A stretch of 64,000 bases of DNA from Nitrospirae bacterium MYbinv3 (lineage in GTDB: Bacteria > Nitrospirota > Thermodesulfovibrionia > Thermodesulfovibrionales > Magnetobacteriaceae), in the NCBI GenBank assembly GCA_002753395.1, contig PEAB01000011.1, forward strand, positions 1 through 64,000. The letters are read 5' to 3'. The notes under the pieces were generated by a model that made no database searches, had not been told where the DNA came from, and was given only the letters and a program-made list of their open reading frames with translations. Below, piece after piece: positions 45,324 through 49,769 of the stretch. The position numbers and the translations under genes were made by a program. Numbering within the stretch: position 1 is the stretch's first letter; each line of letters starts with the position of its first letter.

Positions 45324-45482
45324 GGGCGCATAAGAACCCGATGGGAACAAAAACATACTTTAATGGGGTCAAGGGGACCAGTCCCCTTGCGGAGGGGTCT
45401 GAGTGGAGGGGTTGCGAACCCCTGCGGCAACAGACAGAGCATCCCCTTCTTTGACAAAACCCACGACTTTATTATGCACCCC
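45324..45482. repeat. MITE-A-related repeat
   Basis: gggcgcataagaacc ... cacgactttattatgcaccc. Confidence 0.65.
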
Positions 45483-45674: not shown

Positions 45675-47165
45675 ATGAAGCATTGTTTTATCCTTGTATA
45701 TCTGATGTGCTCTATACTGTTATCTGTAGTTGAGGCCAAGGGTGAGATCGTTGTAAGCGACTATGAGGCACAGTTTACCGTTGTACCAAACGAATCGGGG
45801 AGATTTGAAGATGTCGCCGTTACCTTAAAGATCACCTATGAAACCACTAATCAAAGACTCAGTAATGGGTTTAAGTTTGTAGGTAAAGACAAGATTGAGA
45901 AGGTTAGCGTCTGGGATGAAAGCGGTGAAATCCCATTTAAGATCGAAGAACTCGTTGAACGTAAGATCAGCTTTAATTTTGCCTCTGTTAGCACAGGCAG
46001 CAAGGTCGTTATCATTAACTTCCTGATTGTCAACGCTATAAAGGAGAAGTTATTCACAAGTCATTTCGATGCCACATGGGTTGGAAACTGGTCTATACTT
46101 GTAAAAAACGCCCTCTACAGCTTTACATTTCCAGCTAGCTACAGTTATCAAAGCGTTACCACCAACTTCCCTTCCTATACAGAGACCAACGCCTCCGGTA
46201 GAAAGGTAATTATAATCTACCAGGCTCCATTAACTACCAGGCATTTCAGATTAGAGGTCAGCCCTGCAATCAATGGATACAAGTTTATATTTTTTATTAT
46301 ATGGGGCGTAGCCTCATTGTACATTGTTCTAATCAGCATAATCAAGCGAATTAGAATGCCAGCAGCACAAATCTCAGATCCACAACAACCAACGGCAGCC
46401 GAGGCTGCGTATCTTAAGAAGGGATTTATACATGCCGTATGCGTAACAGTCTTTGATCTGATACAACGCGGGTTCATCCAGAGGATAGACAATCATTACA
46501 TACAATCCACAAAACCAAACAACACGATCAATAACCATGAGTATATTATTATGGCATTCTTTAGACAATCTGCAACCCTAAAAGGCTTCTTTAAGAACAA
46601 ACACGCTAAAGAACAATTTAAACGGGAAATTCTTGACTCACTGACAAAAAAGGGGTGCTTTGTTAGCAACTACGACAAGCAATCTGTCTTTTCTACAGTG
46701 ATTTTTAACTGCATCCTGGTCGCTGTTGTGCTCGTAGCGTCAGGTAACTACTTTGGGATTGGTGCCAAATATATCGCACAGTCCCTCATAATTTCTGTAG
46801 TCTGCACAATATGGGCAATAATATTCTTGCTTTCTCACACAAAATCAAAAAGAGCAAAGGAAATCTTATCTACAATAGAACAAACCGTAAAAAGGGATAG
46901 CTTGATAATAACAAACGACCCGCAATACAACCCTATGTTAAGCTATGCTGTTGCCATTATTGGGATGCCTATACTGTTAGGCACGGTGTATGACACATTC
47001 CTTGATACCGTATCCTACGCACGCGCCTTTCACCCTGGCGGAAGTACGGCGTGCAGCTCATGTGGCAGTTCGTCCTCTGGCGGTGATGGCGGTGGCAGCG
47101 ATGGTGGTGGTGGCGATGGCGGCGGCGGAGGGTGCGGAGGATGCGGGGGCGGCGGTGGTGATTAG
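45675..47165 (+). CDS. Membrane protein (DUF2207/TIGR04222-like) with low-complexity Cys/Gly/Ser C-terminal tail
   Basis: Signal peptide, TMs, EAAYLKKGFIHAVCVTVFDLIQRGFIQ block; tail STACSSCGSSSSGGDGGGSDGGGGDGGGGGCGGCGGGGGD. Confidence 0.85.
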   Translation: MKHCFILVYLMCSILLSVVEAKGEIVVSDYEAQFTVVPNESGRFEDVAVTLKITYETTNQRLSNGFKFVGKDKIEKVSVWDESGEIPFKIEELVERKISFNFASVSTGSKVVIINFLIVNAIKEKLFTSHFDATWVGNWSILVKNALYSFTFPASYSYQSVTTNFPSYTETNASGRKVIIIYQAPLTTRHFRLEVSPAINGYKFIFFIIWGVASLYIVLISIIKRIRMPAAQISDPQQPTAAEAAYLKKGFIHAVCVTVFDLIQRGFIQRIDNHYIQSTKPNNTINNHEYIIMAFFRQSATLKGFFKNKHAKEQFKREILDSLTKKGCFVSNYDKQSVFSTVIFNCILVAVVLVASGNYFGIGAKYIAQSLIISVVCTIWAIIFLLSHTKSKRAKEILSTIEQTVKRDSLIITNDPQYNPMLSYAVAIIGMPILLGTVYDTFLDTVSYARAFHPGGSTACSSCGSSSSGGDGGGSDGGGGDGGGGGCGGCGGGGGD

Positions 47166-47168
47166 ATC

Positions 47169-48161
47169 GTGCTTAGGATATCCGGCTTTGATGAGTATTT
47201 CTACCTCCAATGGCATATAAATAGTCAGTGCAACTTACGCTGCGCCCACTGCTACGCACAGCAGGCCAACCCCCATCTTGGTGTGGAAGAGCTTTTCTTG
47301 ATCCTTGACAAGTACGTCGCTTTTCTCAAAAAAAAGGGAATAAAGGGCAGGATCCAATTCTCAGGCGGTGAACCATTTCTATCAAAAGAACTGTTTCCAT
47401 TACTTATGCAAGCAAAAAATAAAAACATCCCAACCAGAGTACTCTCCAATGGGACTCTAATCACCGTACAGGTCGCTTTTGAACTGGTCAAAACAGGTTG
47501 CCGCACCGTCCAGATATCCCTAGATGGCGATATTTCAGTGCATAATGACATCAGGGGGGATAAGGCCTTTGAAAGGGCGTTAGAAGGAGCCATACATCTT
47601 AGAAACAACAATATAAAGGTTACATTTCAGATGACAGTATCACGTCGAAATCACCTGTCGCTTAAGCCCGTTTACGACATCTCAAGGCAATATGCCAACA
47701 GGTTCTCCCTATCGAGATTCGTCCCGATAGGGTATGGTATTCAGATGAGTAACGATGTCCTGTCGGCAAAAGAAATGCGCGGGGTCTTTAAGACCTTCAC
47801 TAAACTGAAATCGGGCAATCAAATAGACACTCCGATGCGCGACCCCCTCTGGCATCCATTTTTCAACAGATGCAATCCCCATCTTCTTAGCGGTTGTTCT
47901 ATAGGTTACAACGGCATTTGTATCGACAGCGACGGAACGGTCTACCCGTGCAGGCGTCTGCCGATACCATTAGGAAACATCCTGACTCAGGACTTAGATG
48001 TTATCTACAATTCAAAAGTGCTCAACCAGTTGAGAGACAGAGACCTGCTCAAAGGCAAGTGTGGTAAGTGCCGCCTGAGGTGGCAATGCGGCGGCTGCAG
48101 AGCTATAGCATATGCGGTAAATAACGACTACCTGCACGAAGACCCTCAGTGCTTTTTTTAG
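47169..48161 (+). CDS. Radical SAM/SPASM-domain protein, putative peptide-modifying enzyme
   Basis: CNLRCAHCY (CxxxCxxC); C-terminal CSIGYNGICIDSDGTVYPC...CGKCRLRWQCGGC...C. Confidence 0.93.
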   Translation: MLRISGFDEYFYLQWHINSQCNLRCAHCYAQQANPHLGVEELFLILDKYVAFLKKKGIKGRIQFSGGEPFLSKELFPLLMQAKNKNIPTRVLSNGTLITVQVAFELVKTGCRTVQISLDGDISVHNDIRGDKAFERALEGAIHLRNNNIKVTFQMTVSRRNHLSLKPVYDISRQYANRFSLSRFVPIGYGIQMSNDVLSAKEMRGVFKTFTKLKSGNQIDTPMRDPLWHPFFNRCNPHLLSGCSIGYNGICIDSDGTVYPCRRLPIPLGNILTQDLDVIYNSKVLNQLRDRDLLKGKCGKCRLRWQCGGCRAIAYAVNNDYLHEDPQCFF

Positions 48162-48418
48162 GTTGGCAGGCATGATGAAGTTGGGGAGCGCTACAATATA
48201 ATGGAAGGCTTTGCCTACTAACGCAGGGGTTCACAACCCCCTCCCTCAGGCCCACCCACAAGGGAACTCGTCCACTTGGCCCCGTAAATGTCAGGCGTGG
48301 TTGCTTAAGCTGTTAGCTGATTTGGCGTACCTTAGTCTTTCACTTTCCTTTAATTCGTTAAGCAATTAAGCAATATGTAACTTGTTTTTTTAATCTAAGA
48401 CATGATAACTTACTGCTA

Positions 48419-48988
48419 ATGTGTGACGATTATATATACGACGTGTTTATAAGTTACAGGAATCGTGTTCCGTTAATTTGTGGGTGAAAAACCACTTTCA
48501 CAAGTTGCTAGAGTGGTGGTTAAAAGAGAACTTGTCTTATATGCCGAAATTTTTTTTGACAAGGGATGAGTATAGGAGATGATTGGTCTGAAGAAATTAA
48601 AATAGCATTGAAGCACTCACGTTGTTTAGTTGCAGTATTGTCAACTCAGTATTTCAATTCTTCCTGGTGTGTATCTGAGTGGAAAAGCATGGAAGAACGT
48701 GAAAGTCGATTAGGTTGTAAAACTATTTACCCTGTAACGTTTTTTGATGGTGAAAAGTTTCCTTTGTACGCTAAACGAAGATTCCCAAAAGATTTAAGTA
48801 AATGGAATCTTCCTGAGGATCATTACAACACAACAGTAGAATACTTAGAATTTCAAAGAGAAATGAAAATAATTACAGAAGAATTAGCAATAAAAATCGA
48901 ATCGGTGCCTCCGTGGCGACCTGACTTTCCAATCTTGGAAGTACCAGAAGAGCCAGAAACCAAATCGACTATGCCGGCGTTTAGATGA
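48419..48988 (+). pseudogene. TIR-domain protein, disrupted by about three single-base deletions
   Basis: MCDDYIYDVFISYRNRVP (frame 1) / VNLWVKNHFHKLLEWWLKENLSYMPK (frame 2) / IFFDKG (frame 3) / MSIGDDWSEEIKIALKHSRCLVAVLSTQYFNSSWCVSEW. Confidence 0.85.
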
Positions 48989-49142: not shown

Positions 49143-49769
49143 TCATGGGCTAACTAGGGAAGCATTATAATGATGGATAAAATACCATACTGCTCCAATG
49201 TGGTTCTCTTTTTTTTTGTAAAAAGAAAGAGCTTTTCTGACTAATCTGGATATTCTTTGTCTCATTGTACAATTAAATCTTTCGATGTGGCTTGTTTTTC
49301 CACTTTCTTTTCCAACAGGACGATGTCTTTTTGATGGAATAATTCCTGCGTATGCCGTCCAAAAATCTGTATAACATACGGCGCATTGCCTATAAACAGG
49401 AGGAAGCTAATTCCATAATCCCTTAGCTCCTTCTATGTCACGGCTCCCTACAAAAGCACCAACCACTTTGCCAGAATCATCATCTAATGCTAACCAAATC
49501 CATTGTTTATTCTCCTTATTTCTGACATAATACCACATTTCATCACATTGGATTGTTAGACGTCCCTTTTCTTTTTTTTTTACATCTATATATTGAGGCA
49601 CTGTATCATGTTTTTGGTTCACATAATCTTGAAGGCAATGTTCAGAGACACCAGTAACACGTACAATTGCAGCTAATGCCATCCTCTCTAATAACAATTT
49701 ATCAATTAATCTCTCGTTTCTTGTGATATTATGATGTTTTGTGGATTTTCTACAAATTGTCTGCCGCAC
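49143..49769 (-). pseudogene. IS1-family transposase orfB with in-frame TAG (49407-49409)
   Basis: ...GAKGLWN*LPPVYRQCAVCYTDFWTAYAGIIPSKRHRPVGKESGKTSHIERFNCTMRQRISRLVRKALSFYKKKENHIGAVWYFIHHYNA. Confidence 0.85.

What the first reader, a model, noticed from the sequence alone, without database searches (positions are those of the whole stretch)
45675..48161. Candidate radical-SAM peptide-modification system: Cys/Gly/Ser-tailed membrane protein next to a SPASM enzyme
Seen: the membrane protein ends in STACSSCGSSSSGGDGGGSDGGGGDGGGGGCGGCGGGGGD, with two CxxC pairs in a low-complexity tail. Three bases after its stop a radical SAM protein begins (CNLRCAHCY), with a SPASM-like Cys-rich C-terminus. 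Known: SPASM radical SAM enzymes such as the sactipeptide and quinohemoprotein maturases often modify Cys- or Gly-containing peptides encoded next door. I recall a TIGR-defined membrane family (TIGR04222) with similar low-complexity tails near radical SAM genes. Inference: the tail is a substrate that becomes crosslinked while attached to a membrane anchor. The product and function are unknown to me.
Basis: partly seen in the sequence, partly recalled or inferred. Interest (0 to 1): 0.88.

Follow-up and report, generated by a model that had tools for sequence, protein, structure and literature searches.

The report
Cys-tailed membrane protein and its enzyme
Two touching genes in a magnetotactic-bacterium relative encode a membrane protein with a conserved cysteine/glycine tail and a radical enzyme that is found wherever that tail is found, so the enzyme very probably chemically modifies the tail's cysteines, perhaps making a metal-binding patch on the cell membrane.

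Summary
In a Magnetobacterium-genus genome (Nitrospirota), a DUF2207/TIGR04222-type membrane protein ends in two conserved CxxC pairs within a Gly/Ser/Asp tail. A full SPASM radical SAM gene starts 3 bases after its stop codon. In searches that ignored the enzyme, 17 of 17 Cys-tailed TIGR04222 proteins had a radical SAM gene next door or one gene away (one decayed). None of 40 relatives with Gly tails lacking Cys did; those often sit beside LemA. The tail is the constant part. The same enzyme clade serves different membrane bodies, and related bodies with near-identical tails are served by two enzyme clades that cannot be merged (AU p = 2.5e-12). One of those clades is inside SbtM, a family with a member shown to turn Cys into thiooxazole. 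A non-homologous thiooxazole-forming enzyme class, MNIO, is reported beside other TIGR04222 tails, but is absent from all 20 genomes checked here. I conclude that the tail is the enzyme's substrate (about 0.8). The product is more likely Cys-derived thiooxazole (about 0.45) than the crosslink first proposed (about 0.3). No modification has been shown. Whether the tail faces the cytoplasm or the periplasm is unresolved. New variant of a known kind.

The parts
45675..47165 (+). Membrane protein, 496 aa, DUF2207/TIGR04222 type, with Cys/Gly/Ser tail (stop codon included)
   Evidence: ORF; TIGR04222 1.5e-9, 37.9 bits; profile match to DUF2207 proteins, probability 99.3%
45675..45740 (+). N-terminal signal or anchor sequence (aa 1-22)
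   Evidence: Hydrophobic stretch 3-21, mean hydropathy 2.04; helix 3-18 in the model
45747..46268 (+). DUF2207-N-like beta domain (aa 25-198), expected outside the cytoplasm
   Evidence: Profile comparison; beta-rich in AlphaFold2; distant fold matches to parts of M1 aminopeptidases and oligosaccharyltransferase/translocon entries, weak
46305..46970 (+). TIGR04222 region: TM1, cytoplasmic helical domain, TM hairpin
   Evidence: below the curated cut-off; orthologues over it; probability 99.5% to over-cut-off members
46935..46991 (+). Last hydrophobic segment (aa 421-439), membrane-crossing uncertain; decides which side the tail is on
   Evidence: Hydropathy 1.8; helix broken and pLDDT under 50 from residue 433
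47043..47162 (+). Cys/Gly/Ser/Asp tail (aa 457-496), proposed substrate
   Evidence: C460, C463, C487, C490, G491-G493 and D496 invariant in 12 relatives; codon constraint; disordered, pLDDT about 33
47052..47063 (+). First CxxC (C460-C463)
   Evidence: Sequence, invariant
47133..47144 (+). Last CxxC (C487-C490), in the terminal CxxC-Gly(3-5)-Asp motif
   Evidence: Sequence, invariant
47169..48161 (+). Radical SAM/SPASM enzyme, 330 aa, proposed tail maturase
   Evidence: Pfam, NCBIfam, AlphaFold2 pLDDT 88.6 and nearest solved folds SuiB, anSME, SkfB, TigE, CteB-type
47229..47252 (+). CX3CX2C motif binding the SAM-cleaving [4Fe-4S] cluster (C21, C25, C28)
   Evidence: Invariant in 21 relatives
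47895..48155 (+). SPASM domain with C243, C251, C261, C298, C301, C307, C310, C328 (two auxiliary clusters expected)
   Evidence: Pfam SPASM; conservation

Best explanation
The two genes form a self-contained modification module. The membrane protein carries its own substrate, a disordered Cys/Gly/Ser/Asp tail, on a DUF2207/TIGR04222 body. The next gene makes the SPASM radical SAM enzyme that acts on that tail. Shown here by sequence: the strict pairing, the near-zero gene spacing, conservation of the tail at protein level, and constancy of the tail while bodies and enzyme clades change. Inferred: the enzyme removes a hydrogen from the beta carbon of each tail Cys and closes it with the preceding amide into a 5-thiooxazole (loss of 4 H per Cys). 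This would leave a thiol(ate) and ring nitrogen that can bind soft metals such as copper. The tail would stay membrane-anchored and work as a fixed metal-binding or redox patch, not as a released peptide. Confidence by step: tail is the substrate, about 0.8; thiooxazole is the product, about 0.45; metal binding is the role, about 0.35.
For: 1) Searches blind to the enzyme found 16 Cys-tailed TIGR04222 proteins in a 296-genome Nitrospirota sample. All 16 have a radical SAM gene adjacent or one gene away (in G113 it is decayed, in G184 only its start is on the contig). The one over-cut-off hit in 297 genomes of another phylum, L203, is also Cys-tailed with an adjacent SPASM enzyme. 2) 36 Clostridia DUF2207 proteins with Gly/Ser ends have no Cys in the last 30 residues and no radical SAM neighbour; 20 have LemA nearby. 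Four Nitrospirota relatives without tail Cys also lack the enzyme. 3) Same enzyme clade, different body: L044 and L045 have only the N-domain, one TM and a (CxxCxx)n tail, yet their enzymes are 45% and 43% identical to the window's. 4) Related body and tail, different enzyme clade: f9 and f24 bodies are 39-46% identical, the third gene 52-58%, and the tail end GGCGGGGC(G)GGCGGCGS is shared; joining their enzymes in one clade is rejected, p-AU 2.5e-12. 5) The f24 enzyme scores 538 bits against SbtM, cut-off 350. An SbtM converts Cys in a peptide to thiooxazole with loss of four hydrogens (PMC11002830). SbtA-like peptides beside SbtM here carry S/G-S/G-Sec-S/G-G/A motifs like the tail's Cys context. 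6) TIGR04222 proteins are proposed MNIO substrates (PMC12452194) and related MNIO enzymes make 5-thiooxazole that binds copper (PMC13097082); MNIO is absent from 20 genomes with the radical SAM version.
Against: No product has been seen. The window's enzyme is not SbtM: 170 bits against a cut-off of 350, near-equal scores to AhbD and the ACGX family, and no SbtM N-terminal region. It could do different chemistry on the same kind of tail. Grouping clade A with SbtM is neither supported nor rejected (p-AU 0.096) and A with B is not rejected (0.205), so only B versus C is a firm enzyme change. If the tail is outside the membrane, a cytoplasmic enzyme must act before export. The two large samples come from different phyla, so body type, lineage and Cys are partly confounded. 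No metal gene is a constant neighbour.
Confidence: 0.45

Rival explanations
1. The enzyme makes thioether (sactionine or ranthionine) or C-C crosslinks between tail Cys and Gly/Ser/Asp, stiffening the tail into loops; in particular an Asp follows the last CxxC in clade A and could be a partner, as in Cys-Asp ranthipeptides.
For: Nearest solved folds are peptide-modifying SPASM enzymes, several of them crosslinkers (SuiB, SkfB, sactipeptide enzyme 5wgg/5why). In clade A the Cys lie in CxxC pairs and a terminal Asp 4-6 residues after the last Cys is invariant.
Against: All crosslinker models (StsB, PapB, SkfB, AlbA, CefB) score far below cut-off. Many clade B and C tails end in Ser, Gly or Trp and lack Asp near the Cys, so Asp is not a general partner. 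Fold similarity does not separate these chemistries.
Confidence: 0.3
2. The tail is not modified: it is a metal- or cluster-binding or redox tail that serves the radical SAM enzyme (cluster delivery, electron donor, membrane docking), and the enzyme's substrate is something else.
For: CxxC pairs are classic metal and redox motifs; strict co-occurrence would also arise from such a partnership; scores to AhbD and NirJ2 haem enzymes are close.
Against: Separate SPASM clades, one of them a known peptide-modifying family, share the same tail. SPASM enzymes in general need no such partner. MNIO enzymes, which are not radical SAM enzymes, are reported next to similar tails.
Confidence: 0.14
3. Lineage hitch-hiking: the pair is inherited together without functional contact, and the Gly/Cys tail is low-complexity drift.
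For: Much of the sample is within one phylum.
Against: Flanking genes differ between genomes while the pair stays; the pair occurs in Nitrospirota, Omnitrophota, Elusimicrobiota, Tenericutes, Clostridiales and the phylum of a Deltaproteobacteria-labelled genome; the tail is under codon-level constraint.
Confidence: 0.04

Closest known systems
SbtM/SbtA thio(seleno)oxazole system (NCBIfam TIGR04082)
   Same: SPASM radical SAM enzyme beside a protein with S/G-flanked Cys or Sec; the f24 tail enzymes are SbtM by the curated cut-off
   Different: Window enzyme is below the cut-off and lacks the SbtM N-terminal region; SbtA is a short Sec peptide, here the carrier is a multi-TM protein with Cys only
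TIGR04222 proteins next to MNIO enzymes (PMC12452194)
   Same: Same membrane family, same kind of Cys/Gly/Ser tail, modifying enzyme next door
   Different: Enzyme is a SPASM radical SAM protein; no MNIO gene in 20 genomes tested; that paper does not mention radical SAM partners outside its references
MNIO-made thiooxazole metallophores: bufferins, captophorins (PMC13097082)
   Same: Repeated Cys in short Gly-containing motifs; proposed Cys-to-thiooxazole chemistry and copper binding
   Different: Peptides with signal sequences, made by a non-radical-SAM iron enzyme with a partner protein
DUF2207 proteins next to LemA
   Same: Same membrane body and Gly-rich end
   Different: No Cys in the end, no radical SAM neighbour
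Sactipeptide and ranthipeptide maturases (SkfB, CteB, PapB)
   Same: SPASM radical SAM fold
   Different: Small free peptides with leader; models not met
ACGX system (TIGR04340)
   Same: Among the three best models; Cys-Gly repeats in the target by its name
   Different: 159 bits against a cut-off of 400; target family not seen here

Membership tests
TIGR04222 membrane protein | Score at or above the curated cut-off of 43 bits | tested here: not met
   37.9 bits, 40.3 bits; six close relatives with the same gene pair do pass, 12 proteins in the phylum sample in all
TIGR04222 membrane protein | Low-complexity C-terminal region after the last hydrophobic segment | tested here: met
   Sequence and alignments
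DUF2207 | Pfam gathering score for PF09972 or PF20990 | tested here: not met
   13.2 and 11.0 bits; profile-profile probability 99.3% shows distant kinship only
Radical SAM/SPASM enzymes | CX3CX2C and Pfam Radical_SAM above cut-off | tested here: met
   66 bits against 29.5; Cys invariant
Radical SAM/SPASM enzymes | SPASM Cys set for two auxiliary clusters | tested here: met
   C243, C261, C298, C301, C307, C328 invariant, C310 in at least 90% of 21 relatives; Pfam SPASM 42.8 bits
SbtM (TIGR04082) | Score at or above 350 bits | tested here: not met
   170 bits; the f24 tail enzymes reach 529-538
SbtM (TIGR04082) | N-terminal region (model positions 1-195) | tested here: not met
   Match starts at model position 198; protein is only 330 aa
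SbtM (TIGR04082) | Makes thio(seleno)oxazole | not testable with these tools
   Needs co-expression and mass spectrometry
Sactipeptide/ranthipeptide maturase | NCBIfam equivalog score (StsB, SkfB, PapB, AlbA) | tested here: not met
   59-90 bits against cut-offs of 300-850
ACGX system enzyme (TIGR04340) | Score at or above 400 bits | tested here: not met
   159 bits
MNIO-modified precursor system | MNIO (PF05114) gene | tested here: not met
   0 of 20 genomes, positive controls rang
RiPP | Precursor modified, usually cleaved from a leader | not testable with these tools
   No protease or exporter is a constant neighbour

The most novel reading that the evidence does not exclude
Two unrelated enzyme classes, SPASM radical SAM (at least two separate clades) and MNIO, have independently been recruited to put the same Cys-derived thiooxazole metal ligands on the tail of one membrane-protein family. 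The result would be a membrane-anchored, never-released metallophore found from magnetotactic Nitrospirota to Firmicutes.
Probability: 0.33. Interest if true: 0.85.

Novelty: new variant of a known kind. Interest (0 to 1): 0.7.

Why it matters
It ties a widespread membrane family of unknown function to radical SAM enzymes through a clean natural contrast (Cys tail with enzyme, no Cys without). It suggests that peptide-type chemistry is used on an integral membrane protein that stays put. The swap between an SbtM enzyme and another SPASM clade on the same tail makes product identity directly testable: two purified enzymes and one tail peptide would settle it. If both give thiooxazole, as MNIO enzymes do, this would be convergent evolution of one metal-binding group by different chemistries.

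Tried and rejected
A first genome-contig scan with the membrane protein found nothing by the pattern method; the enzyme alignment worked. I considered viperin (PADLOC pVip hit, 75 bits) and rejected it: the hit covers the radical SAM core only, and a SPASM domain is present. I considered haem enzymes AhbD and NirJ2 from similar scores and rejected them as identity: all far below cut-off. I first read the tree as three origins of the pairing, then tested it: A with B and A with SbtM cannot be excluded as single clades, only B with C can. Cys-Asp pairing as a general rule was dropped because many clade B and C tails lack it. The published view that TIGR04222 tails are periplasmic was checked. 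The last hydrophobic segment is weak in some relatives, and the single-TM relatives L044 and L045 would place the tail in the cytoplasm if the N-domain is outside, so I left this open. Structure searches of the membrane model gave only low-TM matches. The SbtM primary paper is not in the library, so its result is cited through a review. Searches of other Omnitrophota and Elusimicrobiota found related enzymes without Cys-tailed neighbours.

Full report
WHAT IS THERE. The window lies in a 3.7 Mb genome (96.6% complete) of the same genus as Candidatus Magnetobacterium casense; the matching contig length identifies G242 as strain MYR-1. At 45675-47165 (+) is a 496-residue membrane protein. Three bases after its stop, a radical SAM gene begins with GTG and runs to 48161. 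In relatives the gap between the two genes is 0 to a few tens of bases or a small overlap, and the start codon of the second gene varies, which suggests translational coupling (inference).

THE MEMBRANE PROTEIN. It matches NCBIfam TIGR04222 at 1.5e-9 but just under the curated cut-off (37.9 of 43 bits). Six close relatives with the same gene pair exceed the cut-off. Pfam DUF2207 is only marginal, but profile-profile comparison joins it to DUF2207 proteins over residues 3-339 with 99.3% probability and to over-cut-off TIGR04222 proteins over 201-496 with 99.5%. So it is a DUF2207-type body: signal, outer beta domain, TM, inner helical domain, TM hairpin. An extra hydrophobic stretch and the tail follow. 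AlphaFold2 gives the body moderate confidence and the tail none, pLDDT about 33.

THE ENZYME. It has CX3CX2C and a full SPASM cysteine set. The AlphaFold2 model is confident (pLDDT 88.6). Its nearest solved folds are peptide- or protein-modifying SPASM enzymes (SuiB, anSME, SkfB, TigE, the sactipeptide enzyme 5wgg/5why). It fits no curated equivalog: best are SbtM 170 of 350 bits, AhbD 166 of 500, ACGX 159 of 400.

THE ASSOCIATION IS REAL. I searched for the membrane family without using the enzyme. In 296 Nitrospirota genomes TIGR04222 found 16 proteins with Cys-rich tails. All 16 have a radical SAM gene next door or, in family f9, one gene away. In G184 only the enzyme's first 140 or so residues remain before the contig ends, and in G113 the locus is decayed. 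In 297 genomes of the phylum of G300 the single over-cut-off protein also has a Cys tail and an adjacent SPASM enzyme (L203). The contrast set is 36 Clostridia DUF2207 proteins with Gly/Ser-rich ends: none has Cys in the last 30 residues, none has a radical SAM neighbour, and 20 have LemA nearby. Four Nitrospirota relatives without tail Cys also have no radical SAM neighbour. Fisher's test on 17/0 against 0/40 gives 7e-15; shared ancestry makes the true figure weaker.

THE TAIL IS THE CONSTANT PART. In Omnitrophota L044 and Elusimicrobia L045 the enzyme is 45% and 43% identical to the window's, yet the carrier lacks the TIGR04222 half: N-domain, one TM, then CSGCSGCSSCGGCGGCGGCGGCGG or CSSCSSCSSCSSCSSCSSCGG. 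Conversely, families f9 and f24 of Nitrospirota share body (39-46%), a nucleotidyltransferase-like third gene (52-58%) and tail end, but their enzymes belong to different clades; one clade is rejected with p-AU 2.5e-12. The f24 enzymes lie inside the SbtM clade (100/100) and pass its curated cut-off. The deeper order is less certain: clade A (window) with B, or with SbtM, is not rejected. At codon level, the last CxxCGGG block is nearly fixed at positions 1 and 2 and free at position 3 across 13 genomes.

MECHANISM. Because the tail stays while bodies and enzymes change, the tail is most simply the enzyme's substrate. The chemical guess rests on two bridges. First, an SbtM enzyme converts Cys or Sec in a peptide to thio(seleno)oxazole with loss of four hydrogens (review PMC11002830). 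In Nitrospirota, SbtA-like peptides beside full-length SbtM read like SGUGATKGDAQQAPAKSGUSG, the same S/G setting as the tail Cys. Second, a 2025 survey proposes TIGR04222 tails as MNIO substrates (PMC12452194), and related MNIO enzymes make 5-thiooxazole that binds copper (PMC13097082). MNIO is missing from all 20 genomes tested here, so the radical SAM enzyme appears to take its place. Crosslinking remains possible and is rated about 0.3.

TOPOLOGY. The cited survey puts the tail outside. In the window, three good TM helices and a weaker fourth stretch (hydropathy 1.8; 1.3-1.4 in f9) leave both sides possible. In f24 positive residues precede the tail, and single-TM relatives would keep it inside if their N-domain is exported. 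A cytoplasmic tail would let the enzyme reach it easily. A periplasmic tail would need modification before export.

NOVELTY. I found no paper that links TIGR04222 or DUF2207 with radical SAM enzymes in the library searched. The library lacks most subscription papers, and the curator's notes on TIGR04222 could not be read, so someone may have noted it. The parts are known kinds; the combination (an uncleaved membrane carrier, a radical SAM enzyme in the place of MNIO, and exchange between enzyme clades) is a new variant.

Noticed in passing
window 45357-45448 and 48200-48291: The gene pair is bracketed by two inverted copies (74%) of a roughly 92-base intergenic repeat; at least 41 matches to it lie across the genome, also at 2470-2559 of the window. 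Probably a dispersed intergenic repeat, not part of the system.
   Followed up: partly
window 48566-48988: Short TIR-domain ORF (TIR_2, 46 bits) that looks like a fragment; weak PADLOC match PDC-S66.
   Followed up: no
window 49407-49769: Sub-threshold IS1-type transposase fragment.
   Followed up: no
L211 1177-1428 (reverse-complemented locus) and L056 4728-4913: Small Cys-rich ORFs (TGCGS-like repeats in L211) lie just upstream of related SPASM enzymes: possible free-peptide counterparts.
   Followed up: no
L026, L027, L077, L078, L080: A nucleotidyltransferase-like gene sits with the Cys-tailed protein and radical SAM enzyme in families f9 and f24, as a third member.
   Followed up: partly
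L030 8020-9977: Decayed copy of the f9 locus: the radical SAM frame is broken, and an OsmC-like gene piece is duplicated on both sides.
   Followed up: no
L085, L088-L092, L095, L096, L098, L099, L101: Sec-containing SbtA-like peptides upstream of SbtM genes in Nitrospirota, visible only when TGA is read as Sec.
   Followed up: partly
L045 2378-4120: A separate 580-aa DUF2207_C protein (53 bits) precedes the single-TM Cys-tailed protein, as if the body had been split into two genes.
   Followed up: no
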